Assembly: GCA_020746875.1 (NCBI GenBank)
Contig: JAGTJL010000001.1
Location: 2,294,001-2,358,000 of the forward strand
Direction of reading: 5' to 3'
Source: Rhexocercosporidium sp. MPI-PUGE-AT-0058
Lineage: Eukaryota; Ascomycota; Leotiomycetes; Helotiales
DNA: 64,000 nucleotides
Part shown: in pieces, positions 1,300 to 50,350 of the stretch
How positions within the stretch are numbered: the stretch's first letter is position 1
Layout of the letters: every line of letters begins with the position of its first letter
Made by a program: the position numbers and the translations under genes
The notes under the pieces: generated by a model
What the model saw: only the letters and a program-made list of their open reading frames with translations
What the model was told of the DNA's origin: nothing
Databases searched by the model: none

Positions 1300-1402
1300 C
1301 CTAAACGTGGTGCCACCTATACATCCCGTATCCTACCACCCAGCCACCTTTATATTGTCGTCCCTTGTAGCCCACGTAAGTGTACAATATCGTACCACCA
1401 AC
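1300..1402. repeat. Diverged promoter repeat, copy A
   Basis: This segment aligns with 44321-44423 over about 100 bp, by eye roughly three quarters identical with a few small gaps. Many of the differences are transitions. Shared blocks include CGTGCCACCTATACATCCC-like and TATCGTACCACC-like stretches. Copy A ends about 80 bp before the flavoprotein ATG, so it forms the proximal promoter. Copy B lies about 1 kb upstream of the ABC transporter gene. Confidence 0.7.
1306..1317. promoter_or_regulatory. Candidate cluster operator (CGTGGTGCCACC)
   Basis: One mismatch from the GGTGG-YR-CCACC palindrome seen at the other cluster promoters. It lies about 165 bp upstream of the flavoprotein ATG, inside the repeat at 1300-1402. 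Further CCACC half-sites follow at about 1335-1350 and 1393-1399. Binding is inferred from recurrence only. Confidence 0.5.
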
Positions 1403-1481
1403 TTACAATTATATAATTTTAAACCGGCACCGCCGTGGCTATCTCCTCAGAAAGCCAACGTGACAGCCGACTGTTCGAACC

Positions 1482-2549
1482 ATGCCGTCTGTTTCATCAA
1501 AGTTGTACGATTGCATTGTCGTTGGAGGGGGCCCGGCTGGACTTGCCGTGGCCTCGACTCTCGGCCGTCTAAATCTTTCAGCCCTCGTCTTTGACTCTGG
1601 CGTCTACCGCAATGCAGCGGCACAGTATCTCCACAACGTCCCAGGGTGGGATCACACACCTGCCGCCAAGCTGCGGGAGAGGGTGAGGGACGACCTGACC
1701 TCACGGTATTCCTTGATCGAACTGAGTGACGTGAGCATAACCACCGTGAGCAAGTTGCCTTCGGGCCACTTCGAGGCAGTCGACTCCAAGGAGAACAGCT
1801 CCACCGGCCGGACGTTGGTGTTGGCGACCGGTATCCGAGATGTTATGGTAGAAATAGATGGATATGCCGAGTGCTGGGCTCGGGGCATGTAAGTTCTTGT
1901 GCTGGGCATCAATTGCATTGGAGGAGCAAAACTGATGCCAGTCCCAAGTTTCCATTGCCTCATATGCCATGGCTTTGAAGAACGCGGTGCTCCGTCAATC
2001 GGCGTCCTTGCTGTTGGTACTACAGCCAACCCACGTGTGACAGCACAAACATCACGCTTGGCATCGCAGTTCGGAAGCATCATCACAGTTTATACTCACG
2101 GCGACGAGAAGCTTGTCCCTACATTGCAGGAGGCCCTGGGAAACAACACGCAACGAGTCGTTTACGAACACCGAAAGATAATGAGTATCCGGATGGAAGG
2201 CCCCAAGTCTAGCGGTGTTATTGTCGTCCTTGAGGACGGGACTGAAAGATCAGAAGGGTTTTTGGCAAGTCTCCATCTTCCAGATCAAGCTTTACTAAGC
2301 GTCTAATATAATTCTTAGGCCCACTCGCCGGGTTTTGAAATAAACGGCCCGTTTGTTGCACAACTTGGTTTGGATGTTACTGAAGCTGGGTACATCAAAA
2401 CAACAGAGCCATTTGGTGAAACCTCTGTGCCGGGTGTTTTCGCTGCTGGGGATACTATGACTTCAGTCCATTTTATTACCAATGCAGCGCTCAATGGCGG
2501 AACCACTGGTGCTGGTATTGCTTATATGCTAGCGGGCGCGAGCCTGTAG
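1482..2549 (+). CDS. Thioredoxin reductase-like FAD oxidoreductase (GliT family)
   Basis: Exons 1482-1888, 1949-2264 and 2319-2549 give 317 residues. The N-terminus has the FAD dinucleotide fold (IVVGGGPAGLAVA, about residues 12-24), the centre has the redox pair C-L-I-C followed by HGFEERG, and the C-terminus has the second FAD motif PGVFAAGDT. This is the layout of GliT/HlmI-type dithiol oxidases (GliT is about 334 residues) rather than housekeeping thioredoxin reductase. Intron 1 is GT-AG; intron 2 (2265-2318) appears to be a GC-AG intron with donor GCAAGT, the only choice that keeps the GFL-AHSPGFEINGPF junction in frame. It is the leftmost cluster gene and carries a degenerate copy of the cluster motif. 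Likely roles are dithiol/disulfide redox chemistry on the product, self-protection, or an oxidation step in tailoring. No other sulfur-handling gene is nearby, so the substrate is open. Confidence 0.88.
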
Positions 2550-4423: not shown

Positions 4424-7400
4424 CTAGCACTGTAGCCGAGCATTGACATCGAGGAGAAAAGTCTCTTCTTGCGCATCCTCGTACGGAGCCTTCTCCTTCG
4501 CGGAAAATAAGGTGTTAGTTGCGATTCCTTTTTGAAAAAACCTGTTGGCCTTCTTTGCCCTGATGAGTGCTTTCCCTCTATAGCATTCATACTCGTCTTC
4601 GGCCAGAGTAGCCAATAAATAGCGTGGGTGAACCAAGATAGCCTGTGCGTTCTTCTGACCGAAGCCAAACGACGTGACGGAGAGAGCGGTGACTCCCGTC
4701 GTGTGAATGGCTTGATTTGGAAAGAAAACGAGATGGTTGAATTCTAAATCGCTATCAATATTGTCTGCATTCCGGTTGCCGGGCACGATGCCTGTCTCGA
4801 GAATTTGCAATCCGCCATTGACCATCCACGCTCCTGCACCACCTTTCGAATGGCCAGTGAGATATTTCTGGCAGACTGCCATGATTGGATTCCCGGGATG
4901 GCGACCCATATGCGAGAGTTGCTGTTGAAGCACCGTCGTCTCATTGATGTCGTTAGCCACAGTGGAGGTTCCGTGGAGACTGGCAACTTCGAGATGGTTT
5001 GCATTCAAATGCCAGACTGCCAGCGCGGAGGCCACGCGGTGGGTATTTGCCAACAGCCCTTTTCCTGGAGCTGGCACAGACCGACCAATCTTGTCGCTGG
5101 CTGTGGCGACCGTGGCCACGATGGCGCGAATAGGAAGACCCATATCAAGTGCAAGTCGCGCGGTCGTGAGCACCTGAACACCAGCACCCTGCGACTCGAC
5201 AAACCCAGCCCTCGAGCTTGTCATGGGCCGGGAGCTTTCAGACGAAGGACGACCCCTCCGTGCCTCATCGTCAGTGCTGACAGTCGCCTTCATAGAGGCA
5301 AACTCGAATGCCGTCACTTCGCTGATATCGTCGACTCCTCCGACAAGACAGAATTTGGCTTTCCCGCTGACGACAGTCTCGAAGCCTAATTCCAAAGACT
5401 CGACACCAGTCGCGCAAGCTCCGACGGGAGTGCGAATGGGCCCAGATGCAGACATCAGGAGCATGTTGATCCAAGCCGGCATCGTGTTTATGAATGTTTC
5501 TTGAAGGGTGTCATGTGGAATGTCCCTATCGAGGTGTCGATGCCCATATGCAGACCTCAACGATTGCATGCCCCCCGCCCCCGAGCCAATACAGTTCCCC
5601 ACCTCGGAGACGTGGATGTATTGATACAGCTCGTATGCATCCACAATACCTGACGATAGAAGTGCCTCAACAGTACTGATAAGTGCGAACAGCGTAATTC
5701 GGTCCACTTGTGAAATCAACCACTCGGGGATCCCATACCGGCGGGCATCCCACCCAGAAGGGACCTGACCAGCGATGTCACGGTCAAACCTCAGAGCCTT
5801 GGGAACTTTCAATACTGCCCCCTTCAGGAGTGACACATAGCATTCGTTGACATCCTTCTCTATTATATCTGCCTTGTCGCCATGCTCAAGTCGAAACTGT
5901 TCCGCAGCATCCTTTGATGCCGCAAAAGCAGGCAAGTCCGCCTCGAGGACGATTTCGTGGAGAAATTGTTTTTTGTTGGGGTCGTACCCATGATCCATAT
6001 CAGCATTCACCAACCTGATGCCAGTGTGATCAAGGATGTGCTGCTCATACTGCGCCTTTATTTCAGAGTCGTGGACTGGATTGCCTGTCCTCGAGTCAAC
6101 CCATCCGATGTGGTATCCGCCGTCTGCAAGATTCCCTTCGTGGTACTTGATCAATCCCATTACCCACGCCAACTCCAGACAGCCTTCCAGAGAGAATTCC
6201 CCGGTGGCCTCCATCTCCCAGCGAGTACGCGCGCTGCCAAAAGGGCCAACTTCACCCATACCAGTGATAACCACGATTTTCTCGAGATCGACCGCGCCTC
6301 GAGGAATCTCCTGGGATCGTCTGGCCCATTTGAACTCAGAGAGTCTTGGGAAGGAGAGACCCATCTTGGCAAGGCGCGGAAGATGCGTCGAGACCTTGGG
6401 TACCTGCGAAACATTAATCTCATCGCCGTATTCCCGATTAGCCCGTGCTTTGTCGCTCTCTTTCTTCAAGGCGAGAGCTATGTCGCTTTCTTGCTGGTTC
6501 TCGAGGCGAATATCGTTAATCGCCGCCCGAAGATCCGGCAGCGTGGCCAGCCCCCCACACAAGTCTGCGTAAACGGGTTCATTCTCGTTGAGTTGAGCAA
6601 AAGGCTCGCTCATGAGAACCAAGAGTTGAGAAGCCATCTCTGCCGTGGTAAAGGTACGAACACCACGCTGCTCCAGACCGTCGGCGAACGCCTCGGAACG
6701 AGCCATGAGGCCAGTTCCTCGCACCCAGCCAATGATGGCACCACACACAGAGAGATATGGAGCCCAGCTCTCCGAATACCACTTTGTCATGAACATTTCC
6801 AGCCCAATTTTTGATTCGGAATACATGCCATCCTTTCCGAAGGTTCCGTGGTTCGGAGAAAGGGGAAGGATAACTTGTGCCGGGCCAGAGGAAAAGTGTC
6901 CAGCGCCAGCCTGCTTCTGTTTCTTGACCGCGCCCAGAAGGCGGATCAAGTTCGTCAGCATCAGCCTGTGGGCCAGTTCGGATTCTGCTCCAAGGCTGTC
7001 CATCTCAGCTTCCTCAGCTACCGCAGCAAAGGGAACGAGGTGATCCAACTCCCAGCCAAGGTCGATGCATACATAGTCGACGAGACTCTCAACATCCTGG
7101 CGACTTCCCTGGTTAAAAGGCACCACAACCAGCTCCGAATCCCTCGCACCGTATGACATGTACAGCTCCTGGTACTGCCTGTAGACTTCAGTCGACGGAC
7201 GACTTGTTGTCACAAGCACTTGCGCTCCCCCAGCGAGTAAGCCTCGCACAAGATCAAATGCGATAGATCCACGACTAGCACCCGTCACTAGAACGGTCTT
7301 GTTCTTGAAAGATAGGCTGTGTGATCTCTCCTGCGTTCGCAGGCGCTCAAAAGTGGTTGTAAGAGCTTCATTGAGTGACCATTCATTTGCCTTCTTCGTT

Positions 7401-9160
7401 CGCATCTCCCGTGGATAGTTATATTGGTTCGCGGACCGCTCAACTTCTTCTGTCGTCACGCGGCCACTTTTGTCGATAAACGTGTGAGGTGCCATCATTT
7501 CGCTAGCTCGAAATGGTGATGTAAATAAAGAGCTGGATCTGCCTTCGCAATTGTCTAGAAGCTCCTGCAAGAGGTTTGCAAGCCCAATGTGAGCAATCGT
7601 CTTGCAGAAGTGCCGTACAGCGTGGATGAAACGGGCTGTCGCACGATTCAGCATCTGTGAGCAACGATGTCTCATCGAGATATCTGTAGTTTGTATCTTT
7701 CCAAGCAGAACGTCGTTCACCAGAAGATATAAATCCTGTAGTACCCAATTCCAGGACGAGTTATAAATGCGGGCCTTTCGTTTCGACATGATGGGTCGAA
7801 CGCCATCAAGGAAACGATGCCCCATCTCCCTAGTCAGGGCATCCAAGTCTTCTTGTAGACTGGCAGTGGCAGCTTGCTTTACTTCGGCGTCATTTTTTAG
7901 TTGTCGAATGAGCTTGGAGTCAGCGCCGGGAGCTTGCTGTTCCAATAACTGACCTCTTCCGTGCTCTGAAGGAGTGGAGACTACATGCGGTGTTGAAAGT
8001 GCATCTGCTACCATGTTGCTCGTTGGGTAGGCATTTTGAGTCTTGATCTCAATGTCGATGCCAGTTCTCTTAGCATAATCCCCGACAATATCATCTATGA
8101 AGCCTTTCGACGCCTCGGGGTTAGTAAATCGGGACTCAAGTTGCATTGTGCTAGCGCAAAGGAGAACGGCATCCTGTCTCCCCGGCCCAAGACCCCATCG
8201 ATCTTCCATATAGCGCCGAGCACTAGCCATGTTGAAACCAGCGGGCATCTTGGTAGAGAAGAGTCTGGAAGTGAGATTTACACAGCATTTGCTAAGCAGT
8301 GCTGGTGAAGGTTTCGCCATGTCGATCTGATGGTGGAGTTCTTCGATTGCCATTTCTTCTGCTCTCTCGGGAAGATTTGGAAACATGCTATGCAAATTAC
8401 CAACAATTTCATTTTCAGCCGTCGAACGTCCTACTTTTGTCAGCCTTGAAGGAATTTCAGGAGGATGAATCATGACCACCAACCTCCTGCAAGTTGCTTG
8501 ATTGTCTTGTCTTTGGACACTTCTCCGAACCGCTTACGCAATATATGTGCAATTATGGTGGTTACAATGTCGCCAGAGTTCAGAGGAATATCAGGAATTG
8601 CCGCGGTGTTTTGTCTCTGGGTAGAGGTATTCGACATTACCACTGTCGTTGATGTTGATATTGTTGGCGTTGTCGTCACATGTGACTCGTGAGTAGTCGG
8701 GCACGGATGCCCGGATTTATGAGGTCTCTCATCCTCCTCCTCTTCTTCCTCCTCGTCTTCAGTGTGATCAAAGTAAATTTGGGCCCTGTCTTTCTCGTAT
8801 TGGAGTAGTTGTCGTGGTCGCTCACGACGCGCTGCCTCGTTCATTTGATAGATCGAGGCAATCGTCTTTTCAGCCATCGACACTAATGTACCAGAGGGCC
8901 CAATCTCAACAAGGCGATCGGCATCTTGCTGTCGTATGAGCAGATCCTGTGTTTCGATCCTGGCAATCCATGCTTGTGAGCTTCTACGTGAGCTCTTTGG
9001 GTGCGCACAGGACGACACTCACCATTGCACCGGCTTCGCAATTTGGTAACTTGTTATATGTTAGTCAACATGCAGATAACTGTTCAGAGCACTGGTTTAA
9101 TTACGCTAGAAGCTCGGTCAAAAGAAGGTGCCCAAGCTGCTGATGAACCTCGGGCAACAT
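4424..9160 (-). CDS. Dedicated fatty acid synthase alpha subunit, no PPT domain
   Basis: Exons, in transcript order, are 9160-9105, 9049-9023, 8959-8484 and 8430-4424, giving 1,521 residues. The first two exons are tiny but rebuild the conserved start MLPEVHQQLGHLLLTELLA and the QWIETQ block. Order seen: C-terminal part of the malonyl/palmitoyl transferase (about 1-100), an acidic Glu/Asp-rich linker, ACP with 4'-phosphopantetheine Ser near 189 in AGGRSTAENEIVG, ketoreductase (VLVTGASRGSI near 565), and ketosynthase with Cys near 1191 (GACATGVES), HGTST and LTGHSKGGAGAW. The protein stops at NARLQC, where housekeeping alpha subunits (about 1,860-1,890 residues) continue into a phosphopantetheinyl transferase domain. 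That domain is absent, so ACP activation must come from another enzyme. It pairs with the beta subunit at 32227-38722. Presumed role: a medium-chain acyl precursor for the NRPS product, as with HexA, ToxH and AtnF. Confidence 0.93.
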
Positions 9161-9331: not shown

Positions 9332-9371
9332 GGTGCGCACCTAAGGGTGTGACACCACTGGTGGCACCACT
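9332..9371. promoter_or_regulatory. Candidate operator in the FAS alpha/P450 divergent promoter
   Basis: GGTGGCACCACT at 9360-9371 matches the GGTGG-YR-CCACC palindrome at 11 of 12 positions. A second palindrome, GGTGCGCACC, lies at 9332-9341. They sit about 200 bp upstream of the FAS alpha ATG and about 230 bp upstream of the P450 ATG, so one site could serve both genes. Confidence 0.55.
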
Positions 9372-9601: not shown

Positions 9602-11413
9602 ATGTCAAGCTTTCTGGAACAGCTCCCTCTAAGATCGCTCTTGCTATGGCTCACCGTGTTGCTTTTACTAAGCATCTACGTACGTGCCAGTGCATCCAAT
9701 TGTCATTCGCTATTGAGAACAACTTATCAACTCTTATTTAGGTTTTTGCTATAGGTGCGTACCGCTTATGGTTCCACCCTCTTGCGAAGTATCCCGGGCC
9801 ATTTCTCGCTAGACTAACAACTCTCTACTCTGGCTACCACGCTTGGAAAGGAGACCTTCACATAGACATGTGGCGATGTTGTGAAAAATACGGTTAGCAC
9901 AATATCTCTCCAAATTTCGCACAAGAGTTGTCTTCTAAGGATGCCCCGATAGGTCCCTATACTCGATATGCCCCCGACAGACTCCTAGTCAATACAAATA
10001 CAGGTCTTCGAGGTAAGTCTTCCTCGATTTTACAGGCGACATAACTATAAATTAATATAAAACGGGAAGAAATTTACAGTCACTCTAAGCAGCTGGGAAA
10101 GGCACCTTGCTACGGCGCTATGGTGCACCGGGCCCCAAATGTTCTAACGCTCTTAGACAAGACGGCCCATGGTAAAAGAAGACGCATCCTTAGTCAAGGA
10201 CTCTCAGATTCATCGTTTCGGTCATACGAACCTAATATCCTGAAACACATTGGCCGGCTTTGCAGTCAGTTGGATCCTCTTCCAGGATCGGAGTGGTCTG
10301 AGAACAAAGACATGTCCGATTGGAGTAAATTCTTTACCAATGAGACCAGGGTACGCATGACTTCTGACATTGGCAATAGGTGGATATTTCACATTCGACG
10401 TCATGTCAGACATTGTGTTTGGGGAGGAGTATGGTCTTCTTGACAAGGAAGACAAAAGGCCGATACTAGCGGCCATCGAAGCCTCCAATGTCCGCATAAG
10501 TGTGCTCCTTCAAGCCGCTTCCCTATCATTCTGTCGTATCGACCGCCGACTGTTTCCCGAGGCCATACAAGGCCGCAATATATTCGTCAACTTTGTCAAG
10601 GAGTTATTGTCGCGGCGCGTTAAGGCTGACCCTTTAATACGTGGGGATGTCTTCTCATACCTGCTTAAGGCGCGAGACTCGCAGACTAAAGAGGGCCTCG
10701 ATCAGGATGAGATATGTGCTGAAAGTACAACCATGATTGTAGCCGGTGCGTACTTGTATAATAGTGCCCATCTCTCCGTGCGCTAACTATTTGTTTTCTA
10801 AGGCTCTGACACTTCATCGACTGTAATCTGTGCTGTACTCCATTACTTAATGCATAATCCAGAAACGTACGAAAAGGCAGTAAAAGAAGTGCGCGGTGTG
10901 TTTGCTGGGCCAGACGACATTCATGTGGGCAAATGCCTCAATTCGTGCACATACCTCCGCGCCTGCCTTGACGAGAGTATGAGGCTCTCGCCGCCAGTTG
11001 GTTCGTCCCTATGGCGGCGTATTCTCACCGACGACTTTGTGGTCGACGGCCAGGTTATACCAGCAGGCTACGAGGTGGGCACGTCTATCTATAGCATTCA
11101 CCACAATCCCGCCTATTACCCTGAACCCTTTGCCTTCCGACCGGACCGCTGGCTAGGAGATAATGAAAAGACCCAACTCGCTGTGAGCGCCTTTAATCCA
11201 TTCTCCCTCGGTCCGCGGGGCTGTATTGGCAAGGGTCTGGCCTTGATCGAACTCACTCTGGCCATGGCTACTCTTTTGGTCTCCTATGACATCCGCATGG
11301 CTGGCTTTGGTGATGAAGAAGGTTTTGTGGAATTTCCAGAGTTCCGATGTTACGATCACGTCACTGCGGCTAAGAAGGGCCCAGTGCTAAACTTCCGAAG
11401 ACGAGTTGAGTGA
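9602..11413 (+). CDS. Cytochrome P450 monooxygenase
   Basis: Exons 9602-9679, 9742-9892, 9953-10012, 10070-10324, 10380-10745 and 10803-11413 encode 506 residues, normal for a microsomal P450. The N-terminus is a hydrophobic leucine-rich anchor followed by a proline-containing hinge ([12 protein letters not shown]). Key motifs: I-helix VAGSDTSST, K-helix ExxR (ESMR), the FRPDRW region, and the haem loop [12 protein letters not shown] with the Cys ligand. The NRLLINTNTG-like block is typical of the fungal Tri13/benzoate-hydroxylase-like P450s common in clusters. It diverges from FAS alpha. In related pathways a P450 oxidises the FAS-derived chain; here alpha-hydroxylation ahead of transamination is the likely job, but a distal or late tailoring role cannot be excluded. 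Confidence 0.92.
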
Positions 11414-11985: not shown

Positions 11986-12823
11986 TCAAAACGTGAACCC
12001 CTTGTGACTTACATTTTGTTCTTCAAATATGGAATAATGATGACCCTTAATATCGAACACAAACTTGATAAAATTCTTCTCATAGTCGGCCCAACCAAGC
12101 GTCCGTTGATCTCGATAGTGATCGACGCTGTTCACCCCTTCCTTCTCAGTTTCAGGCGCCGTGCTACGGTCACCAGCACGCAGGAGTATCGTGGGTGGTT
12201 GGCGGCAGAGCAAGGACAAGCCTTGGGTCTTCTTCCATGATGGAGGTGTCCATACCTGTAGCATGGCTTGGCTTTGAGCTATGTTGCGCGCAATTAAAAA
12301 GCTCTTGTCATTTGTAGGTTTGTCTTCATATTGGATTCGAATATTGTGACCAAACTCCTCTGCCCGTAGGGATGGTGATGGGAAGACGGTATCAATGAAG
12401 ATAATGCCTTGTACATGAAGGCCAGTGTCGCCACTCTCGTGTATTAGATGGGCAATTTCAAGGGACACAATACCACCCAGAGACCAGCCTGGGTTTCAAC
12501 CATTTAGCATTTGTAATATAAAACTTGTTTCAGAAAGTTCAAATACACATAGAATTCCATAGCATACCTCCAATTAGAATATTCCCCGAATATTGCAACG
12601 AGCGAATTAACCGCAGGTACTCGGAGGCCATCTGGCGGATGCCACCTTCACATACCTCACCGGACTCGAATCGACTATTGTAAATACCCCAAATGGGTCG
12701 GCCCAGCGGCTGAAGCAGGAAGTAGTTGAAGATGGTGCCCCCACCGTCATGAATAAGGAACAACGGAGCTTGAGAAGAGCCTGGACTGCCTTTTTGGATC
12801 GGAGTGGGGTTGGGTAGATACAT
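11986..12823 (-). CDS. Free-standing thioesterase (alpha/beta hydrolase)
   Basis: Two exons, 12823-12568 and 12488-11986, with a 79-bp intron, give 252 residues. The oxyanion region is LFLIHDGGGTIFNY near residue 25. The nucleophile elbow GWSLGG is rebuilt exactly across the splice junction. The catalytic His lies in GHHYSIF near the C-terminus. This is the type I thioesterase fold normally found at the end of PKS and NRPS proteins, here as a separate protein. The NRPS has no integrated thioesterase or reductase domain, so this enzyme may release the product, cyclise it, unload the FAS chain as a free acid, or edit mischarged carriers. Its upstream region carries a perfect copy of the cluster palindrome at 12933. 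Confidence 0.85.
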
Positions 12824-12932
12824 GATGATTACCTAGGCACTCACCTTCAGCTGCAGTGATCTCTGATGCATAGTATCCGAAGTTGGGGTGAATGTTTTAT
12901 ATGGCCTGCTATTGGAGCAAGCTTGGCGCCTG

Positions 12933-12944
12933 GGTGGCACCACC
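12933..12944. promoter_or_regulatory. Candidate operator upstream of thioesterase (GGTGGCACCACC)
   Basis: Full match to GGTGG-YR-CCACC, about 110 bp upstream of the thioesterase ATG and just past the aminotransferase 3' end. Since only the thioesterase promoter lies here, this copy points to that gene as a target. Confidence 0.6.
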
Positions 12945-13076: not shown

Positions 13077-14603
13077 TTAACCACAGCTGTGACGAAGCGG
13101 GGAAATCAATGCCAGAGGGTACCCAGATTTCCGATCAGCAATATGTGGTTTCTCTTCCACTTTCAGGACTAGTTCAGAAACTCCGTCGATTTGCACAAGC
13201 CATCCAAAAGATTTAGCTGCTCTACCGTGCATAGTGCTATCTAGAAGTTGTGACAGAATCTGACAATTCTTGCCCACTCCTTCACTAGGTGCCAGATAGG
13301 TAAACACTTGCTCGGTGGACTTGCGGGTAATGGATCGCACGGAGACAAGACTCGCAGCAGTTCCAGCGGCCATAACCTCGGAGAAGTCCGCGAGTTCAGC
13401 GTACTTGACCTGGAGCTAATTAGCCACATCCATAAGCAATTTATCAACAATGGAACTCACCGGCCTCTTCTCTACATGCCAACCCAACGATCTAGCCAAG
13501 ACCATGCATGAGGAACTAGTAACGCTGTCGATAATAGATGGGCTATCAGGAACTACCAGAGTTATGAAGCCACTCTCTCGATCTTCCTTGATGGCCAAGA
13601 ATGCAGAGGTTGAGAACTCGTCGATTTCGTTGCGGGTTTGGCTGTCAAGATGGAGAGTGAGCCCAAAGCCTTGTGCCTTTGCAGCCTCACTCCAGCGAAT
13701 AACTGGGGCATAATTGCCACCAACTTTAGTGGCGCCGGTGCCACGAGGCGCTGCACGGTCAAACTCATCGACGACAAGTGCGTCGAGTGGTTGCACCCCA
13801 TGGTACGCAAAGACTGGCTTCACAAACACGCAAAACACGGCTTCTGGCGGAGCACCGAGTCCAAGACTCTCTCCAGATCCATATGCCATTGGTCGGATAT
13901 CTGAAAGATAAATAAAAAATGTTAGCTTTCAAAGGACTGGTAACCACTTCATGGCTTGCTCGTCACGTACACAATGCTGCAGACGAGTCATGCGGCGGAA
14001 CGAAGGCAGCATTTGCACGCACTGCTAACAATACGCAAGTGACAAAATGCTCCTCTGGTACAAGTGGGAGGAATACTGTTTCGCAGGATCGCACAAACCG
14101 GGCTGCATGTCTATATGGCCTGAAAACGGCAATCTTGTTCTCTGGTGTACGATGGGCTAAGTGTACTATGTATCAGCGAATCCTCCTAGTCTAATTCATG
14201 AATTTACGGCGTGAATAAGTACCTTTTAATCCCTCGTAACACTGTTGTCCTGCGTTTTCAAGTTAGCTTTGATTTGTAAGCGCTCGTCACTCCAAATTAC
14301 CATAGTGAAGCCCTGATGAGAGTCCATGAATCTTTAGGACCGGATCCGTGACGAATTTCGGAACACTCCATTGCCCAGACACCCTATCGTATCGTGACTC
14401 AATATGACCAGCAACTGATCAATTCATGTTAGCCAGGACTATTGTTTGAGAAACTATGACTATGAGCTCACCCCGGGTTAGAATCAGAGCCGGACTACTC
14501 CAATCTAATGTAAAGCATCGACTTAGTCAGATAACTTCACACTAGGATAATTGACGACGAGACTCTTACCAAGGGAGCTCAAAGGGGGAGGAATGTCGGA
14601 CAT
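13077..14603 (-). CDS. Branched-chain-type aminotransferase (PLP fold type IV)
   Basis: Seven exons: 14603-14570, 14504-14472, 14414-14301, 14249-14223, 14156-13971, 13900-13461 and 13415-13077, together 390 residues in one frame. Family marks in order: [56 protein letters not shown], the PLP-lysine region [10 protein letters not shown] (Lys near 190), and the late block [19 protein letters not shown]. Such enzymes move an amino group between glutamate and 2-keto acids. Homologues sit in the HC-toxin (ToxF), apicidin (Aps4) and aspercryptin clusters, where they are linked to the 2-amino fatty acid. It is transcribed away from the NRPS, with a shared 455-bp promoter that holds a perfect cluster palindrome. 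The C-terminal tail after FGWLVQI is longer than usual and may hide a last intron. Confidence 0.92.
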
Positions 14604-38200: not shown

Positions 38201-38722
38201 AGCCTGCAAAAACGGCGAAGGTGTAAAAGATGCTTGAGATTCCATATCAAAGCCTACAATGCTACGGGCACTGAGGTATATGCGAATGATTTCAAGCTTG
38301 GCTGCATGTGGTATGGCAAGGGAAGTGACGGCCGTGTGTATGGAGCCATTTTCGAGGAAGTCATCCTTCATTTGGTTCAGGACATGGCTAATAACCTCCA
38401 TAATATCGTCGTCCTTACGCTTACCCTCGCAAACAAAGGCGAGAAACAGAGAGAGCAGGTGGACCGGACGACGACAGTCGACAGAACAGAACCCAGATAA
38501 AAACTCGTCCTTGAGGCAGATTGCTGTCGCGTACAAGGAATTCGGCAGCGTAATAGTACATTGCACAGTATTCTTGCCCTCTTCGATGGCAATTTTGAGA
38601 GATCTCGAGCGCATCGGCGAGCCCATATCAGAGCAGGTCTTTTTCAGTACGCTGAAGCTCTCGCTCGTCGACGAACTCCCACACTCAAGGGCTGAGACAT
38701 GACTGTATGGAGTTGATGTCAT
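32227..38722 (-). CDS. Dedicated fatty acid synthase beta subunit
   Basis: Exons 38722-33526, 33460-32805, 32747-32367 and 32310-32227 give 2,105 residues; without the last, likely intron (donor GTAAGT at 32366) it would stop at 32358 with 2,080. Domains follow fungal FAS beta order. Acetyltransferase has GHSQG (Ser near 300); enoyl reductase has VAGMTPTTSSWEF near 612 and the GGRGGGHHS flavin region. Dehydratase has SGDYNPIHVS near 1587 and HGMHIS. Malonyl/palmitoyl transferase has FTGQGSQ and GHSLGEF (Ser near 1836), ending PNLTARPFDVT. All catalytic motifs look intact. The frame extends left of 38722 only through a non-ATG codon, so MTSTPYSH is taken as the start. It should form a cluster-specific FAS with the alpha subunit, like HexA/HexB or ToxH/ToxC. 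The beta transferase normally sets chain release, but length cannot be read from sequence. Confidence 0.94.
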
Positions 38723-39804
38723 GGCGTGTAACGTGGGTGTGGTAAGGACGTCTTGGTAAATCAAAAGAATAAAAGCGACGCGAGTACGAGTTGGTCGAGT
38801 AGCAGAACTTTCGGGGTCTCAGGATTTCATAATGCCAAGGCCAAATATCAAATGTCTTTGAAGTTGTTGGAGTCGAAAGGCTGCAGCTAGGAAGTTACTA
38901 ATATAAAACAGATGATTCTCACTCTTAAGGCATACTGAATCGCGATGAAGTCTCGCAAGGGTGGTGGTGCCACCTCGAAGTACCACCAGGAGGTGGGATG
39001 CAGCTTGAAGACCCACCCAAGCAACTGGAAAGTCACTTGCAACCATCAAATGCGCCGCGCTATTCGTTTTTTAACAGCGCCAAGTTCGGAGAAGCTATGA
39101 AGCTTAGCCAGGTTGATCTCAAGGACCGACAGGTGCATGATAGGACTCTTTCTTTGTTCTTTTCGTCCGGCGTTTCTCCTTCTTTGGTATTAGGGATTTA
39201 TGGTTTATCACGGTTAAGATTTTATCCTGAAGGATCTATTGCCATTACTTTCTTTCAGAAAGAGAGTTTGGTTACGATTTACTATTCCCCCCCCCCCCGT
39301 ATAATGTTAAATCTAAAGAATCCTGGGTCGGATCCAGGAAACAGCACCTCTGACTGGCTAGAGAGCCTTGTCAGAGCCTTGCTAGGGGCTTTGCACACGC
39401 CAAAATTTGGTCTGTTATCACGTCAAGGGGTGCAAGTAGGATCTTCTAGAGCCGAAAGCAGTTAATTTCACTGGTCAAACACCCTTGCCAGCTACCCACA
39501 CATCTCCGCCAAATAACATTATACAAGGGGGGGGATAGTATGAAGTAATTCATTTTTGTCAAATAAGGTTTATAGCTTGTATCACGTGGGAAGATTTGTA
39601 GAGGAAGATTTAAGCTTAGAAACCTAGATATACTTCGAGGACGTATTGACTCTCCTTCCTTTAGAATACGACATTGACTGTGGTGTGGTTCATTCTTCTG
39701 ATATATGAGAAAGTCGTGAGTAGTACCTTTAAACCCAAAGGTAAATACATTTAAAGAATAACTTATACTCTTCCGACGTCGATACACCTCAGCCTGCCAC
39801 CACC
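38723..39804. promoter_or_regulatory. Divergent promoter region, FAS beta / bHLH
   Basis: About 1.1 kb separates the two start codons. The FAS beta side holds the operator-like sites at 38963-38996. A run of twelve C residues lies at 39287-39298 and a G-run at about 39528-39535. No gene is seen; the frames here lack family signals and splice logic. Confidence 0.55.
38963..38996. promoter_or_regulatory. Candidate operator upstream of FAS beta (GGTGGTGCCACC)
   Basis: Full match to GGTGG-YR-CCACC at 38963-38974, about 240 bp upstream of the FAS beta ATG. A pair of everted half-sites, CCACC-AGGA-GGTGG, follows at 38983-38996. The bHLH regulator starts 830 bp on the other side and could share the site. 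Confidence 0.62.
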
Positions 39805-40490
39805 ATGGCGCAATATCGAGGTCACATTCCGCGTTCCTTAGGCGCTCCTTCTGACGCCGCCGATCATTCCTTAGTGCCATCCTGCTTCAAAGATCTTTAT
39901 ATGTCAATGAAGTCGCCAGGTGCGTTTGTTGATGTCAGCACGGAAAAGTTGCTTGTTGACAGTCGCGAGCAGATTTATCCTATACCACCGAGAATCCATA
40001 TCCCGATGACCAGCTCATGGTTGACGACGCGCCCGATGAGGATTGGGTCCAAGGGTCTGATGTCCAGTATAACGACAACAATGGAAGAATTCCACGATCT
40101 TGCACCACTAGCGAGATTCACGCTAGCACGCATACCAAGGATGATCGCCGCCGCGGCGCACGTCCCCACCAACGCCCACACTACGCCATCGAGAAACGGT
40201 ACCGCGCCAACATCAATAGCAACTTCGAGGAGCTGCGCCAGTGTCTAGTCGATGCAAGATCATTCTTGGATCTCGAATCTACGTCAGAGAGAGGTAGCGG
40301 AAGCAGCAGCAGCGAGTACAGCCGTTCCGATGAGCAGCAGCAGGAGGCAATGAAGATGAGCAAGACCAAAGTGCTGAGCGAGGCCGTTGACTATATTCAC
40401 TTCTTAGAAGCACTGAACGACCGCGCCACGGAGCATATCCAGCTTCTGGAGAACCAACTTGGCGTTTGTCAAAAAGAGAGCCTTCGCTAG
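39805..40490 (+). CDS. SREBP-type bHLH transcription factor
   Basis: Exons 39805-39919 and 39973-40490 join through a 53-bp intron to give 210 residues. The bHLH domain runs from about residue 107: basic region HYAIEKRYRANIN, helix 1 NFEELRQCLVDAR, a long Ser/Gly-rich loop, and helix 2 MSKTKVLSEAVDYIHFLEAL. The Tyr in EKRYR marks the SREBP-like subclass, which can bind both E-box and non-palindromic sterol-regulatory sites. No membrane segment follows, so this is a short soluble regulator, not a sterol-sensing SREBP. It sits inside the cluster next to a second regulator of a different family. It is inferred to be pathway-specific; zinc-cluster regulators, usual in such clusters, are absent here. 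Confidence 0.88.
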
Positions 40491-41290: not shown

Positions 41291-42363
41291 TTATTTGGCG
41301 GACTCTCTTCCGTCCTGACCATCCTGGCCGTCCTGTGCATCAACTCGGGCACCCTTCGATATTAACAATTGAGCAGCAGCTATGTGACCATGTATCGCAG
41401 TAATATGCAGAGGCCTTTCCCCAGCTTTATCCTGCGCCTCTATGTCTGCGCCTGCATCAAGAAGAGCACTCAATATATCAACGCGGCCTCTGCCTGCAGC
41501 CAAATGCAGTGGAGTCCTTCCATCATGATTGCGGACCTCCGGATTTGCACCGCTCTCAAGCAGCAGCCGGACCATATTCGCGTGTCCATACATGGCCCCT
41601 TTGTGTAGAGCTGTAAAGCCTGATGAGAGGGTTATGGAGTTAAATATCTAATAATAACAGGTTTCAGTTATTCAGAATGTTCAAGTAGCGACGAGGAGGG
41701 TTGCCCACGCTTAGTTCCGCCCTTCCCTTACACATATCCAGTTGCATCAGAGAGGACTCAAATGGCGCATATAATTGTTCTTCAAGTTCGGCGCCTTCTC
41801 CAACGACATTATGGTTTTCTACTTCGTTGCAGCTGCTATGCGAGGGTTCGTGCTCTCCAGACGCATCTTTGTCAAAAGCAGCCGTATTTTGTTCAAGGTC
41901 AAAGAGTGTCATTTCGTCCACAAGTGACGTACTGAACCACTCCGGCATGTCGGGCGAGGATGGTGCCAGAAGGTTGGACGAAGTTGATGTCAACTCGGTC
42001 GCCTCTAATGCCTCAAGGGAGGTATTCCTTTCGTGAGACGATGATTTAACATTTATCGAAACGGCCAGGTCAGTCTCAGTGGCCATCGAGACGAATTGAC
42101 CGGTTTGCTCCCAAGCAGCGGAGTCGACGTAAATATGTGCGACATCTTCACGACCGTGCTTAGTGGCCTCATATTGGCCCTCGTCTGCGGATGATGGTGT
42201 GTTAGCGAATGCGATGGCATCATATCTTGTATAAGTGGTGGGTGCCTATACGCTGCTTCCGTCGGGCCATGCGGTTCTGTCGCCAACGTCGCTCTGCAGC
42301 CTCTGGAAGGCTGTTCCATCTCGTGTCCCGACCTATCGAAGAAGATGAGCTTGGATTTGACAT
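41291..42363 (-). CDS. bANK regulator: basic DNA-binding region plus ankyrin repeats (ToxE/Aps2 type)
   Basis: Exons 42363-42252, 42184-41709 and 41647-41291 give 314 residues. Near the N-terminus is a bZIP-like basic region, ERRWRQNRMARRKQ (about residues 24-37), with no leucine zipper after it. A Ser/Glu-rich middle follows, then three or so ankyrin repeats (GFTALHKGAMYGHANMVRLLLESGA, GRTPLHLAAGRGRVDILSALLDAGA and ERPLHITAIHGHIAAAQLLISKGA). Basic region plus ankyrins without a zipper defines the bANK family, known from ToxE (HC-toxin) and Aps2 (apicidin), which switch on FAS-NRPS clusters. The 3' intron choice (41708-41648) is the least certain part. The tail has a short QDG repeat. A weak copy of the cluster motif lies 70 bp upstream of the ATG, so self-regulation is possible. 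Confidence 0.85.
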
Positions 42364-43121: not shown

Positions 43122-43141
43122 GACCGGAGGAAGGGATAACA

Positions 43142-43335: not shown

Positions 43336-43336
43336 G

Positions 43337-44423: not shown

Positions 44424-45395
44424 TGTTGAGCTAGGGACTAGCTAAATTGACATGTCCTGCAAAAAGCATATCTCTAGTGATTAACCGTACTAACTGGTAT
44501 GGTTCTGTGGCCAACGAACTCCTCACTTTTGGCACGAGGGCTGCGTTTAGTGGGGCATGTTAGCAAAAGTGGCGCGACGACTTAGCTAGCCACATAATCC
44601 GTAAGATAGAACGGTGTCCTCTCCGTACTGAATCCCTATCCCCAGAAGGCTCCGTAGTTTAATGTCATTAAGGGGGTTAGTTGCGAGGAAACTCTATAAG
44701 CGAGGAAACTCTACAAACGAGGATTTGGGTGTTCATCCAGGTGAGTATGTGGCTGATAGAGTAATGGGATGGCTGTCGGATATGTGTTATCGTACTCGTG
44801 GTGGTGCAACTGGTAGGATTTGGTGGTGCGTGCTGACCCTCCAACAGAACCCCCACCCTCAAACTAGGGTCGGACCCCAACCCTAAAACTCCCTGTCGAA
44901 CCCTTTCTACGGATTCCCACCTTGGAAGCATGTTAGATTAGAGATACTAACTGTATACTGCAGGTAGTGATGGCGGCCGCATTATCTACGCAGCCATAGG
45001 ATCGTGCCACTCTGATACGGCACAGACGAAACCACTCTTGGCCTCTTTGTGGAGCCCTGGGGCAGATAGGGTGTGGTGCGTCTTGGTTCTATTAAGGCTC
45101 CCTCAAAATTTTGGGGACGTTAAATTCTCCTACTCATAATTCTTCATCTCCCCTTCTCTATCGGTTCCGATTAGTTGCCATATACCCATCTCTTCACTCG
45201 TTCTCCCCACGTGTGGTCCTCATTCTACTTCATTTACTTGAACGTAGCAACAAGATCACTAAGCATCCGTGTCTAACACGGCCCAATACGGAGACTCAAC
45301 TAGTGCGGAATATACAGATGTAAGAGGAGGCTTGTGAACGACACAGGAACCACAGTTTGATCACGCATAGGAAAGCCAAATCTCGGATCTCAGCA
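44424..45395. promoter_or_regulatory. Upstream region of the ABC transporter gene
   Basis: No gene is seen in this stretch. At 44800-44811 GGTGGTGCAACT resembles the left half and centre of the cluster palindrome, with a nearby GGTGGTGCGTGC at 44823-44834. A tandem echo, GCGAGGAAACTCTA with one variation, occurs at 44686-44713. The last 300 bp are pyrimidine-rich, as expected of a promoter and leader. Confidence 0.4.
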
Positions 45396-48300
45396 ATGTC
45401 ATTCTCTACTGGAGAGGGGGGCTTACTTCAACTAAACCAGACCGGCTTTGACTTTAGCCTCCAGTTCGAGCAACTGTTCTTCTCCATCATCCCGTCGGCT
45501 TTGTTTATCGTAATATCCATATGGAGAACGATTCCTCAGGCCCGGAAACCCATTGTGGTCCACGCACCCCTTTTGAAGCTTATCAAACTTGTATGCTGCC
45601 ACATCCTCCGTAATCATCTGCTGATGACTCCGCTTTAGGGTGCTATTGCGACTTATGTTAGCCTGGAACTTGCGCTTCTGATCCTCGTCGCAGTTGGGCC
45701 TTTCAATGTGACCAAGGTATTCATAGCTTCATCGGTGCTGAAAATGGCGTCCGCGTTGCTTATGATGATGCTGAGCGTGGTAGACCACAGCAAGAGTCCG
45801 AGGCCATCGATTATACTGAGCGTGTATCTGTTTTTCACATTACTTCTTGACTCAGTCCAAGTAAGAACACTCTTTCTATCCTCGACTAAACGGCCGGAGT
45901 TCAGTTACAGTAGCGTCTTCAGCGCTACCATCGCTCTCAAGGTCGGAATACTGCTACTCGAAGCCCAGCGGAAAACAAAATGGGTCAGCTGGAACCAGAA
46001 GGAGCATAGCCCGGAGGAGACAAGTGGCATTTTCTCCCTCAGCCTTTTCTTCTGGCTGAATAGGGTATTCTGGGACGGATACAAGAAGATTCTGTCTGTC
46101 AAGGATCTCTATCCACTGGATAGCTCATTGAGTGCTCAGTTACTCCATGAGAGGTTCGCAAAGAACACGAGTTACACCAGACTCAAGGGCAAAAGACTTG
46201 GGAAATTTGGTCTTTTGAAGGTACTCGTCACGACTCTTCGGGTGCCTCTCCTGCTTCCCATTCTACCACGTCTAGCGCTGCTGGGCTTCACTTTCTGCCA
46301 GCCATTTTTCATCAACACACTTCTGGAGCATCTGTCCCAGCCGGAGATCGATGCAAACGTGGGTTATGGTTTCATCGGTGCGAGTGTTCTGATATACAGT
46401 GGGATCGCTGTATCGACAGCTCTCTACTGGTATGACTTATTCCTCAGCATTGTTCACGTCTTCGTGGCTGATTTAAAACGACAGGTATTTCCACCTGCGA
46501 ATGCTTACTATGGCACGATCCATTCTCGTCACGGAGATTTTCATCCACGCGACTGAGGCTCGAATCGAAGCACGAGATGACACCGCTACTTTGACTTTGA
46601 TGAGTACCGACATAGAACGCATCAATTCGGGCTTCAGATCTCTTCACGAGTTTTGGGCAAGTTTCATCCAGGTTGCTATTGCTAGTTGGATGTTGTATAA
46701 TCAGCTCGGTGTTGTCTTCATTGTCCCAATCGTGGTTGTGACTATCTGTATTGTCGTATTGGCGATCCTTATGAGTTTGACAGGAGACTCCCAAAGGGCC
46801 TGGATGGCTGGAGTTCAGAAGCGCGTCGGTCTTACTGCCACAGTCATTACGCGTATGAAAAACCTCAAGGCGTCCGGGCTTTCCACCGTTATTGGTGGCT
46901 TTGTGCAACACCTTCGGGTCGAGGAACTCGCAAAGGGAAACCGGTTCCGTAAGATCGAGGTTTGTGCGGCTGTTATGGCTTTTACCCCCTTGATGATCGG
47001 CCCGCCATTAACCTTCGCGTTTGCTCAGCGAGCTTTGGATGCCGCTCGAATATTCACCAGTCTTTCGTACCTCATGCTTTTGACGAACCCCCTTTCTCTG
47101 ATATTCCAAGTGCTCCCCGGATTTATGTCTGGGCTAGCTTGTCTAGGTCGAATCCAGGCATTCTTAGAATGCGAGGCACGCCACGACTTCCGTCTACTCG
47201 CTCCGGATACAAGAGATAATTTGTCAGGCTCAGAAGCAGCACCAATGACCCACATCACCATCACTGAAGGAAATTTCGGCTGGGAAGCTAATAAGTTTGT
47301 GTTGCACGATATCAATGTTGTGTTTCCAAAGTCATCGCTCACAGTCGTCGTCGGACCAGTCGCGTCTGGAAAGTCAACACTCTGCAAGGCACTGTTGGGA
47401 GAGGTACCAGTTAGCAAAGGCAAGTTGGCTTTGGACACGGGATTATCTCGCATAGGATTCTGTGACCAGACACCATTCCTTCTTAACAAGTCGATCCGAG
47501 ACAACATTGTGGGATTCTCTCCATTCGATGTCGAGAGATACGACGAGGTCATCAAGGCCACCGCTCTAGACTTTGATATAGATACTATGGGATTGGGCGA
47601 CAACGTCATTGGATCAGCCGGCATCACCTTATCTGGTGGTCAAAAGCAGCGGGTATCTCTCGCAAGAGCTTTATATCTGCAGACAGACTTGCTGATACTG
47701 GACGATATCTTCAGTGGGTTGGATGCGGATACCGAAAACCAGATTTTCCGGCAAGTTTTTGGACCAGACGGCCTGCTCAAACGACGCCTGTCAACAGTGG
47801 TCCTATGTACGCACAGTATCAGGCATTTACCGTCGGCAGACCACATCGTCGCTCTTGGGGGTGGTTTCATCGTGGAGCAAGGCACATTCGATGAACTAAT
47901 GACCCACCAAGGATATGTGAAAAGCCTAGCATTTCGGGGTCCTTCAAACAGTGACCTATCGTCTGAGGAAATGGCGGCGAATAACAGTATGCCAAAATCT
48001 GAGCCAAAATTACTTCGCGCACTAGCCGCGGTTTCTTCGATTGGTCCAGACTCGAATCCATCGCGACAACTCGGCGACCGAACCGTGTACATGCATTACT
48101 TCAAGAGCGCGGGGTTGCTCCTGGCAGTATCTAGCCTCCTCTGTGCTGCTCTCTTCGGCTTCTGCATGAGTTTCCCAACTATCTGTAAGTTGACTTCCGG
48201 TTCTTAAGCACGACCCCAACATCGCTTTAAAAGCTGCAGTTCAGTCAGCGTAACTTAATGCTAGCTTCAGACTAATCTTTGGCAACCGTAGGGCTCAAAT

Positions 48301-50350
48301 ACTGGTCGGATAACGCGTACTCGAAGCATCCGGCTCACAGTTATGCCTTCTATGCTGGCATCTACAGTTTTCTCCAGGTTGGTGCGATGGTATGGCTTGG
48401 ACTTCTCGGTGTTTTATTATTCATTATCTCTGTCCCACGAGTTGGTGCCAGTCTTCACCAGGAAGCACTTCAAACTTTACTCCGAGCACCACCACGGTTT
48501 TTTACCAAAACAGATACCGGTATCGTTATCAATCTATTTTCTCAAGATCTGAATCTCATCGATACGGAGTTGCCAGAAGCCCTCCTGAACACGCTCTATG
48601 CAGTAAGTTGATTGAGATCAACCGACAATTTCTCTCAAAATCTTTCCAAGTTTCCTCGAAGATTAATGCACAGAGGCCAGACTGACACAAATTCCTCCAG
48701 GTCTTTACTGCTATTGGCCAAGCAGCAGTAATGCTTTCATCATCTCCGTACATAGCTATAAGCTATCCGTTCCTGCTCGCTTTGATGTGGATTCTGCAAA
48801 GATTCTATCTTCGTACTTCCAGGCAGTTGAGATTGCTAGATCTCGAAGCTAAGAGTCCCTTGTAGTAAGCCCCCTTCACAATAATTTCTAGCTTTACAAT
48901 TCTACCCCCTATTCGAAGTATAAAATGCTAACGAGGGTTCATCTAGCACGCACTTTCTCGACACGGTTAAGGGAATTACGACTCTGCGGGCATTTGGTAA
49001 GTATATTCAACTCTTCTAGCTGCACCTGGAGGTCTTGTCATGAAATTCCAAATCACATCTTTCGTCTCCCTTAGGTGCGACGTTAGATTTTGTTATAGAA
49101 TTTCCATTTCATTGGTACTGGTGGACTTGTTACTGATGACGTCGGTGGGTAGGCTTCGTTCCCAACGACATTAAGAAGAACGCCTCTTTGATAAATTTTA
49201 GCCAACGGCCTGCATACCTTCTGTTTATGATTCAACAATGGCTGACGCTCGTCCTTAATATGGTTGTTATGGTGCTGGCTACCGTTCTCACCTCCCTCGC
49301 CGTCAAGATCCAAACGAACTCGGGATTCACCGGCGCATCCTTGGTCACGCTCATGGGTTTCGGGAATATCCTGTCCGGCATTGTGATGTTCTACACTACG
49401 CTTGAGACTTCTATTGGGGCGATAGCAAGACTTAAGACATTCAACGAGACAGTAAAGCCGGAGGACAAGGACGAGGAGGACAATATCCCCGCCGAGGATT
49501 GGCCTCAGAAAGGGGTGATCGAGCTAAAAGATGTATCGGCGAGTTACGAGTGAGAAGCATTTTGAGTTCGGACAATATCCATAATCATACTAACAATTGA
49601 TTTAGTACCGAGAACCAAGTCGACGGTGCGCCAGATCTAGCTCTTCGAGATATTGATCTAACCATCAATGGGGGCGAGAAGGTCGCTATCTGTGGGCGTA
49701 CAGGGAGCGGCAAATCAAGCGTGATCGCTCTGCTTCTCAAGCTCTTGGAACCTTTACCGGGCATCGCGGCAACTGCCATGATCGATAACATACCGCTTGA
49801 CCGAATAGAACGTTCCACACTGCGCGAACGGATAATCGTAGTTCCCCAGGAGGCAGTGTTCCTACCGGAGGGGTCGACTTTCCAAGAGAACCTGGATCCT
49901 TTCCATGCTGCTACTGCGGAGGAGTGCAAAAATATTCTCAAAGTTATGGATTCATGGTCGTTTGTCGAGAAGCGAGGCGGCTTGGAGGCCGAGATGGGTG
50001 CAGACACGTTGAGCCAAGGCCAACAACAGCTCATATCCCTAGGCCGCGCGCTCCTAAAACGCCGCATCCGTGCACGTATTCCGGGTGCCAACGGTGGTAT
50101 TCTTCTCCTAGACGAGGTGAGCTCAAGCGTGGATGACAAGACGGAGAGGATAATGCAGGAGATTATAAGGAGTGACTTCAAGGATTACACGGTAGTGGCG
50201 ATTAGTCACCGCCTAGAGATGATCATGGACTTTGATAGGGTTATAGTTATGGATTCAGGCAAGATTGTCGAAGATGGGAACCCGAAGATCTTGGCTGCTG
50301 AAGGGACAGCGACTCGGTTCGGGGAGCTGGTGCGAGCTGGGGCTTTGTAG
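45396..50350 (+). CDS. ABCC-type (MRP-like) full ABC transporter
   Basis: Eight exons: 45396-45590, 45639-46429, 46485-48184, 48292-48602, 48701-48864, 48947-48996, 49153-49549 and 49606-50350, together 1,450 residues. Order: N-terminal membrane block (TMD0-like), first six-helix domain, NBD1, second membrane domain, NBD2. NBD1 has Walker A GPVASGKST near 619, signature LSGGQKQR and Walker B LLILDDIFSGLD, with Asp where the catalytic Glu is usual. NBD2 has GRTGSGKSS near 1233, signature LSQGQQQ and Walker B ILLLDEVSSSVD with Glu. This asymmetry is common in ABCC pumps. It is likely a plasma- or vacuolar-membrane exporter of the pathway product, hence self-resistance. It is the right end of the cluster, set apart from the regulators by 3 kb of repeats; membership is inferred from position, product type and motif-like sites upstream. 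Confidence 0.9.

What the first reader, a model, noticed from the sequence alone, without database searches (positions are those of the whole stretch)
1300..50350. Uncharacterised-looking FAS-NRPS-aminotransferase cluster, probably making a 2-amino fatty acid peptide
FAS alpha and beta, a BCAT-type aminotransferase, a P450, an NRPS and a bANK regulator recall HC-toxin, apicidin and aspercryptin pathways. This cluster differs: it has a GliT-like flavoprotein, a bHLH regulator, a free thioesterase and an ABCC pump, and lacks an alanine racemase, pyrroline reductase, epimerase and MFS pump. The combination suggests a related but distinct lipoamino-acid peptide. Gene calls are read from sequence; the product class is inference.
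Basis: partly seen in the sequence, partly recalled or inferred. Interest (0 to 1): 0.85.

Follow-up and report, generated by a model that had tools for sequence, protein, structure and literature searches.

The report
Gramillin-type lipopeptide cluster, shortened synthetase
A fungus carries a gene cluster closely related to the one that makes gramillins in Fusarium, but its main enzyme has lost or disabled modules, so it probably makes a smaller, undescribed fatty peptide containing cysteine.

Summary
In detail: all ten gene classes lie at 1,482-50,350, on a contig of Rhexocercosporidium sp. MPI-PUGE-AT-0058 (Helotiales). (1) The palindrome GTGGtgCCAC, published as the gramillin-cluster promoter motif, occurs five times, at cluster promoters (0.09 expected from genome density). 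(2) Adenylation domain A3 has the pocket code of gramillin-type Cys domains and sits in their clade (100/100); A2 groups with the gramillin-type 2-aminodecanoate domain. (3) The aminotransferase groups with F. graminearum and F. culmorum proteins (100/98 in a 33-row tree). (4) Both clusters have a bHLH regulator. It is not a gramillin cluster: four modules instead of seven, one Cys module instead of two, a first adenylation-carrier pair lost, and the last adenylation domain dead although its carrier is intact. Best reading: a short X-(2-amino fatty acid)-Cys lipopeptide, perhaps with a second 2-amino fatty acid loaded onto the last carrier by A2. The product is untested. New variant of a known kind.

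The parts
1482..2549 (+). GliT-like flavin disulfide oxidoreductase, 317 aa, CLIC redox pair
   Evidence: Model identical to public P0241; Pyr_redox_2
4424..9160 (-). FAS alpha subunit; ACP, KR and KS (PVGACATG) present, last 170 residues of solved FAS alpha chains not matched
   Evidence: start codon from gene finder
9602..11413 (+). Cytochrome P450, heme motif FSLGPRGCIG; N-terminal exons and start are a guess
11986..12871 (-). Free thioesterase (GWSLGG); start from gene finder
   Evidence: profile hit below Pfam cut-off
13077..14327 (-). BCAT-type (class IV) aminotransferase, KVGGNY lysine present; start approximate
   Evidence: P0121 99% identical; trees
15059..30196 (+). NRPS, 5026 aa, half C-C1-A1-T1-C2-A2-T2-C3-A3-T3-C4-A4(dead)-T4-C5; intron 28491-28547
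17108..18550 (+). A1 (aa 684-1164), code DISTTAVI-K, residue unknown
20300..21796 (+). A2 (aa 1748-2246), code DVASIGGVLK, groups with gramillin-type 2-aminodecanoate domain
23552..25069 (+). A3 (aa 2832-3337), code DVGSLGSIWK, Cys clade
26825..28297 (+). A4 (aa 3923-4413), degenerate: core motif and active-site Lys lost
32358..38722 (-). FAS beta subunit; end and start approximate
39745..40490 (+). bHLH regulator; exon borders approximate
41291..42319 (-). bANK regulator (basic region plus ankyrin repeats)
44764..50350 (+). ABC exporter with TMD0 and two nucleotide-binding domains; the gene finder split it in two, exon borders approximate
1307..1316 (.). Palindrome GTGGTGCCAC, 165 bp before the GliT-like ATG
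9361..9370 (.). Palindrome GTGGCACCAC between FAS alpha and P450 (divergent)
12934..12943 (.). Palindrome GTGGCACCAC, about 60 bp before the thioesterase ATG
14794..14803 (.). Palindrome GTGGTACCAC between BCAT and NRPS (divergent)
38964..38973 (.). Palindrome GTGGTGCCAC between FAS beta and the bHLH gene (divergent)

Best explanation
This is a gramillin-type lipopeptide cluster with a shortened synthetase. Shown by sequence: the genes, the shared promoter palindrome, the gene kinships, the Cys-type A3, the 2-amino-fatty-acid-type A2, the dead A4 and the missing first A-T pair. Inferred: the dedicated FAS makes a medium-chain acyl chain; P450 (and an enzyme not found here) oxidises it to a 2-oxo acid; the BCAT aminates it; A2 loads it; A3 loads Cys; C5 and/or the free thioesterase release the peptide X-(2-amino fatty acid)-Cys-; the GliT-like enzyme oxidises the Cys thiol; the ABC pump exports it; the bHLH regulator acts at GTGGYRCCAC. 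The last carrier T4, whose own A domain is dead, is probably charged by A2, because ancestral A4 seems to have belonged to the same substrate group, which would give X-(2-amino fatty acid)-Cys-(2-amino fatty acid). Likelihoods: gramillin-type family about 0.8; one 2-amino fatty acid plus Cys about 0.65; A2 serving T4 about 0.35.
For: Palindrome: 5 exact sites, all at cluster promoters; 122 GTGGYRCCAC sites in the 62.7-Mb genome predict 0.09 in 50 kb, Poisson P about 6e-8; same motif in 12 genes of F. graminearum cluster C02, by the text of PMC4198257, which is the gramillin cluster. A3 code DVGSLGSIWK equals A6 of the Fusarium seven-module synthetases P0003/P0005 and differs by one letter from their A7; Cys clade of 11 rows, 100/100. 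A2 code DVASIGGVLK versus their A5 DVGTVGGVLK (7 of 10); they share an 8-row set, 99/88. Gramillin order ends 2-aminodecanoate-Cys-Cys (PMC10967133). BCAT clade with F. graminearum, F. culmorum, F. oxysporum, Monosporascus, Rhypophila, 100/98 against 27 others. GRA2 is a bHLH protein (PMC10056406). A4 is dead in the closest relative P0002 too; T4 keeps LGGDSI. P0006 A5 has exactly the window's A2 code.
Against: The NRPS has four modules, not seven, and one Cys module, not two. No 2-oxoglutarate oxygenase (PF03171) match lies in the window, so the alpha-oxidation step is incomplete. The 7-row 2-amino-fatty-acid group alone is not the best tree (an Exophiala domain falls inside), though not rejected, AU p 0.24; the same test with the dead domains did not finish. 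A1's code is odd with one gap; grouping it with Ser domains is not supported (p 0.098, not rejected). P0003/P0005 are taken as gramillin synthetases by layout and genus; their loci were not seen. The 120-row BCAT tree gave only 89 support with long branches flagged; the 33-row tree left the longest out. No exact palindrome before the ABC or bANK genes. The gene finder's overlong bHLH model and a spurious antisense model overlap the palindromes at 38964 and 12934; I dropped both models.
Confidence: 0.7

Rival explanations
1. HC-toxin/apicidin-type cyclic tetrapeptide cluster: four modules, bANK regulator, FAS and aminotransferase make a cyclic tetrapeptide HDAC inhibitor.
For: Four modules, bANK, FAS and BCAT are shared (PMC3729494 and PMC4109984, passages). 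Api-box TGACGTGA occurs 8 times against 2.0 expected, above all 100 shuffles.
Against: Only three intact A domains. No HTS1-type epimerase motif. Seven of the 8 Api-boxes lie inside coding sequence, only 39418 does not; tox-box 1 against 2.4 expected. The A domains group with gramillin-type ones; HTS1 and APS1 themselves were not in the tree.
Confidence: 0.08
2. Iterative version: T4 is a waiting site; two X-(2-amino fatty acid)-Cys units are joined and cyclised by C5, and the GliT-like enzyme closes a disulfide, giving a gramillin-like bicycle from a half-size enzyme.
For: Dead A4 with intact T4 and terminal C (NHAIYDG); a GliT-like gene suggests a disulfide although only one Cys module exists.
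Against: No twin carriers; C4 still has the catalytic His; nothing here tests iteration.
Confidence: 0.15
3. Decaying cluster that makes nothing: loss of the first A-T pair, dead A4 and the odd A1 code are steps of pseudogenisation.
For: A4 dead, A1 has a gap at a pocket position.
Against: 5026-aa frame without a break other than one intron, FAS, P450 and BCAT catalytic residues kept, promoter motif kept, and relative P0002 shares the dead A4 at 51% identity while A3 is 81%.
Confidence: 0.1

Closest known systems
Gramillin cluster (GRA1/NRPS8, C02) of Fusarium graminearum
   Same: FAS alpha and beta, BCAT, multidrug-type pump, P450 next to the NRPS gene, NRPS with adjacent 2-amino-fatty-acid and Cys domains, bHLH regulator, promoter palindrome GTGGtgCCAC; by recall also thioesterase and thioredoxin-type reductase
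   Different: NRPS of four modules (three intact A domains) instead of seven; one Cys domain; no FGSG_00048-like oxygenase in the window; has a bANK gene (gramillin counterpart not checked)
HC-toxin (TOX2) and apicidin (APS/APF) clusters
   Same: FAS, BCAT-type aminotransferase, bANK regulator, four NRPS modules
   Different: No epimerase motif, no promoter boxes of their kind at the promoters, ABC instead of MFS pump, dead fourth A domain, Cys domain
Aspercryptin cluster (atn)
   Same: FAS-supplied 2-amino fatty unit (recalled)
   Different: Six modules and amino-alcohol release are recalled from memory; the window has four modules and a terminal C domain
Five-module relative P0006 (unnamed source)
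   Same: 46% identity; A2-A5 correspond to window A1-A4; final condensation domain with NHAVYDA
   Different: Keeps the first A-T pair and an intact last A domain

Membership tests
Gramillin pathway | Dedicated FAS alpha and beta plus BCAT | tested here: met
   BCAT clade 100/98; F. graminearum gene list
Gramillin pathway | Promoter palindrome GTGGtgCCAC | tested here: met
   5 sites at cluster promoters
Gramillin pathway | bHLH regulator (Gra2) | tested here: met
   bHLH domain; Gra2 class; orthology not tested
Gramillin pathway | 2-aminodecanoate-type A domain followed by Cys-type A domain | tested here: met
   Cys strong, 2-aminodecanoate weaker
Gramillin pathway | Seven-module NRPS with two Cys modules | tested here: not met
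Gramillin pathway | FGSG_00048-type (flavonol synthase-like) oxygenase in the cluster | tested here: not met
   no PF03171 match in the window among 24 in the genome; that FGSG_00048 is of this family is inferred from its name
Gramillin pathway | Product with anhydride ring and disulfide | not testable with these tools
   needs chemistry
HC-toxin / apicidin | Four-module NRPS with one epimerase domain | tested here: not met
   motif absent; fourth A dead
HC-toxin / apicidin | bANK regulator with tox-box or Api-box promoters | tested here: not met
   bANK present, boxes not at promoters except one Api-box at 39418
HC-toxin / apicidin | MFS exporter inside the cluster | tested here: not met
   ABC exporter instead; nearest MFS gene found, at 54475, lies beyond the pump and has no exact palindrome
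Aspercryptin | Six-module NRPS with reductive amino-alcohol release | tested here: not met
   four modules, terminal C domain; the defining feature is recalled

The most novel reading that the evidence does not exclude
A gramillin-type synthetase has been cut down: its first A-T pair was lost and its last A domain died without loss of function, because A2, which shares the dead domain's apparent ancestral substrate, also charges the last carrier T4 (or T4 serves as a waiting site for dimer formation). The product would be a new short cysteine lipopeptide class with two 2-amino fatty acids or a disulfide-closed dimer.
Probability: 0.35. Interest if true: 0.65.

Novelty: new variant of a known kind. 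Interest (0 to 1): 0.5.

Why it matters
The gramillin passages seen here concern Fusarium, apart from a 17% match listed in a Penicillium table (PMC11766614). This cluster puts the same promoter palindrome and the same kinds of building-block domains in a Helotiales fungus with a different synthetase, so the motif can serve as a search key for related clusters. The dead domain over an intact carrier makes A-domain sharing in a fungal peptide synthetase directly testable.

Tried and rejected
HC-toxin/apicidin reading: rejected on motif, promoter and A-domain evidence. In-frame stop at 28532 as a broken gene: rejected, it lies in a 57-base intron with GTAAGA, CTAAC and CAG. First-domain reading as a lipid starter C domain: left open; the HHxxxDR motif is shared with P0006 and P0016, which still have a first module, so it says nothing. 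My first reading that T1 of P0006 and P0016 is dead was wrong: the Ser is there in ADS. Structure of A4: mean pLDDT 46.7 with four rows, uninformative, not searched further. P0009/P0204 and P0034/P0161 share contig lengths, but those BCATs fall outside the gramillin-type clade, so not used as support. Monosporascus P0079/P0123 share a contig length and neighbouring locus tags, but P0079 has no Cys code. One-mismatch palindromes (21 in the window) were not used. No curated cluster collection or fungal synteny tool was available.
Full report
What was checked. The window is G000:C1:2294001-2358000 of a 62.7-Mb, 60-contig fungal assembly. Its NRPS, aminotransferase and GliT-like protein match public proteins of Rhexocercosporidium sp. 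MPI-PUGE-AT-0058 (P0001, P0121, P0241), whose contig has the same length as C1 (5,139,631). The genus is in Helotiales, Leotiomycetes. The flanking ORFs scanned hold ordinary genes.

The synthetase. The gene runs 15059-30196 with one intron at 28491-28547. Domain models built here from its own C, A and T domains and 120 database hits give half C-C1-A1-T1-C2-A2-T2-C3-A3-T3-C4-A4-T4-C5. The public gene call starts 241 residues later and omits the half C domain. Domain-by-domain comparison shows that window A1-A4 correspond to A2-A5 of the five-module relative P0006 and A1-A3 to A2-A4 of P0016; the first A-T pair kept by P0006 and P0016 is missing. The closest hit other than the protein itself, P0002 (63%), also starts with a full C domain; its record ends at the start of T4, so T4 and C5 cannot be compared fully. 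A4 has lost the core motif (TSADHGEAQ in place of TSGTTGxPKG), the FD of the next motif and the active-site lysine; P0002 A4 is likewise degenerate and P0016 A5 looks so in the part present. T4 keeps LGGDSI. Identity to P0002 is 66, 67, 81 and 51% for A1 to A4, so A4 changes fastest of the four but has not been deleted.

Substrates. Two hits were named GRA1 by their sources (P0019, P0075), which led me to gramillin. Pocket positions were read from an alignment with PheA numbering recalled from memory (A domains of 24 of the 121 proteins held). A3 is DVGSLGSIWK. The seven-module Fusarium synthetases P0003 (F. austroafricanum) and P0005 (F. nygamai) have DVGSLGSIWK in A6 and DVGSVGSIWK in A7, and A6-A7 are the most alike pair in P0003 (48%; the other 20 pairs at most 39%). 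That fits the gramillin order Glu/2-aminoadipate, Leu, Ser, hydroxy-Gln, 2-aminodecanoate, Cys, Cys with its two conserved adjacent domains (PMC10967133, passages). In a careful tree of 53 A domains from 11 proteins, the two dead domains left out, the 11 domains with these two codes form one clade, 100/100. A2 (DVASIGGVLK) and the Fusarium A5 (DVGTVGGVLK) fall in an 8-row set, 99/88, which also holds P0019 A4 (DIVSVGAVCK); the 7 rows without it are not the best tree but are not rejected (p-AU 0.244). With the dead domains added (55 rows), A4 falls in a 10-row set, 98/90, with P0006 A3 and A5 nearest of the intact domains; the clade tests for that case did not finish. A quick tree of 75 domains agrees on the Cys group (14 rows, 99) and puts A2, A4 and the Fusarium A5 in one 10-row group with support 81. 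A1 sits with its orthologues; holding it with the Ser domains is neither supported nor rejected (p 0.098), so its substrate is unknown.

The promoter motif. PMC4198257 (passages) reports GTGGtgCCAC as the promoter motif of F. graminearum cluster C02, in 12 genes by its text, among them FAS alpha, FAS beta, the multidrug protein FGSG_00046, FGSG_00047, FGSG_00048 and the aminotransferase FGSG_00049 (there GTGGtaCCAC). C02 is the gramillin cluster (PMC10512235, PMC9605136, passages), with NRPS FGSG_15673 = GRA1 (PMC10455296, passage); that NRPS and P450 FGSG_15680 are listed as neighbours just outside the predicted C02 in the motif paper, without a motif. In the window GTGGNNCCAC occurs 5 times, 0.61 expected from shuffles, 0 of 100 shuffles reaching 5. 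Genome-wide GTGGYRCCAC occurs 122 times (reversed control 94), so 0.09 are expected in 50 kb, P about 6e-8; the reversed control has none in the window. Of 66 GTGGTGCCAC sites in the genome, four lie within 38 kb here; elsewhere the closest pair is about 13 kb apart on C2, and no group of three lies within 50 kb. The five window sites stand before or between cluster genes: GliT-like, FAS alpha/P450, thioesterase, BCAT/NRPS (GTGGTACCAC), FAS beta/bHLH; none overlaps the coding models that I kept. Two models of my gene finder that do overlap sites were dropped as wrong: an overlong bHLH model (38930-39186 exon, no Pfam hit for that ORF) and an antisense model at 12874-12951. Seven of seven enzyme genes thus have a site at their 5' side, three of the sites being shared by divergent pairs; the ABC and bANK genes have no exact site. 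Comparison boxes: tox-box 1 against 2.4 expected; Api-box 8 against 2.0 expected, above all 100 shuffles, but 7 of 8 lie in coding sequence. Why the Api-box is over-represented there is unexplained. Gramillin's Gra2 is a bHLH protein (PMC10056406, passage), and the window has a bHLH gene; that it binds the palindrome is inference.

The aminotransferase. A quick tree of all 120 listed hits puts the window protein with Rhypophila, Monosporascus, F. graminearum, F. culmorum, F. oxysporum and Exophiala, 7 rows against 113, support 89, with long branches flagged. A careful tree of 33 chosen rows of those 120 (Exophiala and several other long branches left out) gives 100/98 for the six others against 27. 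A protein named TOXF in Phlyctema falls outside; TOXF of C. carbonum itself was not in the set. That the F. graminearum row is FGSG_00049 is inference.

How it most likely works. See the best explanation. The step from fatty acid to 2-oxo acid is incomplete: no match to 2-oxoglutarate oxygenase family PF03171 lies in the window (24 in the genome), so P450 alone or an enzyme elsewhere would serve.

Known or new. Of the ten gene classes, six (FAS alpha, FAS beta, BCAT, multidrug-type pump, NRPS, bHLH) are named for the gramillin cluster in passages read here, and a P450 is listed beside its NRPS; two (thioesterase, thioredoxin-type reductase) rest on recall; bANK was not checked. The seven-module layout and the second Cys module were tested and not met, so this is not filed as a gramillin cluster but as a variant of that kind. 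Paper searches found 23 papers with the word gramillin, 22 listed, titles and abstract starts seen; 2 with Rhexocercosporidium and biosynthetic gene cluster, one of which (PMC11376311, passages) reports diphenyl ether polyketides from strain Dzf14; and none of the 10 rows shown of 135 for a Leotiomycetes query held the word gramillin. PMC11766614 lists a 17% gramillin match in Penicillium (passage). The original gramillin paper is not held.

Limits. No expression, chemistry, curated cluster collection or fungal synteny was available. GRA1 of F. graminearum was not among the 120 hits listed (of 1174), perhaps because the search admits only proteins up to 1.75 times the query length. Exon borders of FAS, P450, thioesterase, bHLH and ABC genes come from a gene finder trained on this window and are approximate.

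Noticed in passing
window 15059-15781: The public NRPS gene call (P0001) starts at residue 242 and leaves out an in-frame stretch holding half a condensation domain; the palindrome at 14794 fits the upstream start better.
   Followed up: partly
window 1727, 11356, 17776, 27107, 32435, 32909, 39418, 52294: TGACGTGA (apicidin Api-box) occurs 8 times against 2 expected, 7 of them inside coding sequence; unexplained.
   Followed up: partly
window 4424-4770: FAS alpha matches a solved chain only to residue 1695 of 1865; the missing end is, by recall, the phosphopantetheinyl transferase part, so the ACP may need another enzyme for activation.
   Followed up: partly
window 42983-43126 and 43395-43777: Inverted repeat of 43-base arms and an 84% direct repeat of 135 bases between the bANK and ABC genes.
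   Followed up: no
P0122, P0242: Closest other aminotransferase is from Rhypophila (72%, Sordariales) and closest other GliT-like protein from Amphichorda felina (63%, Hypocreales), suggesting a patchy spread of the cluster.
   Followed up: no
P0009: Aspergillus turcosus has a synthetase with two Cys-type codes and the Fusarium 2-aminodecanoate-type code.
   Followed up: partly
G000:C59:453844-455187: An NRPS condensation domain elsewhere in this genome matches through two in-frame TAA codons.
   Followed up: no
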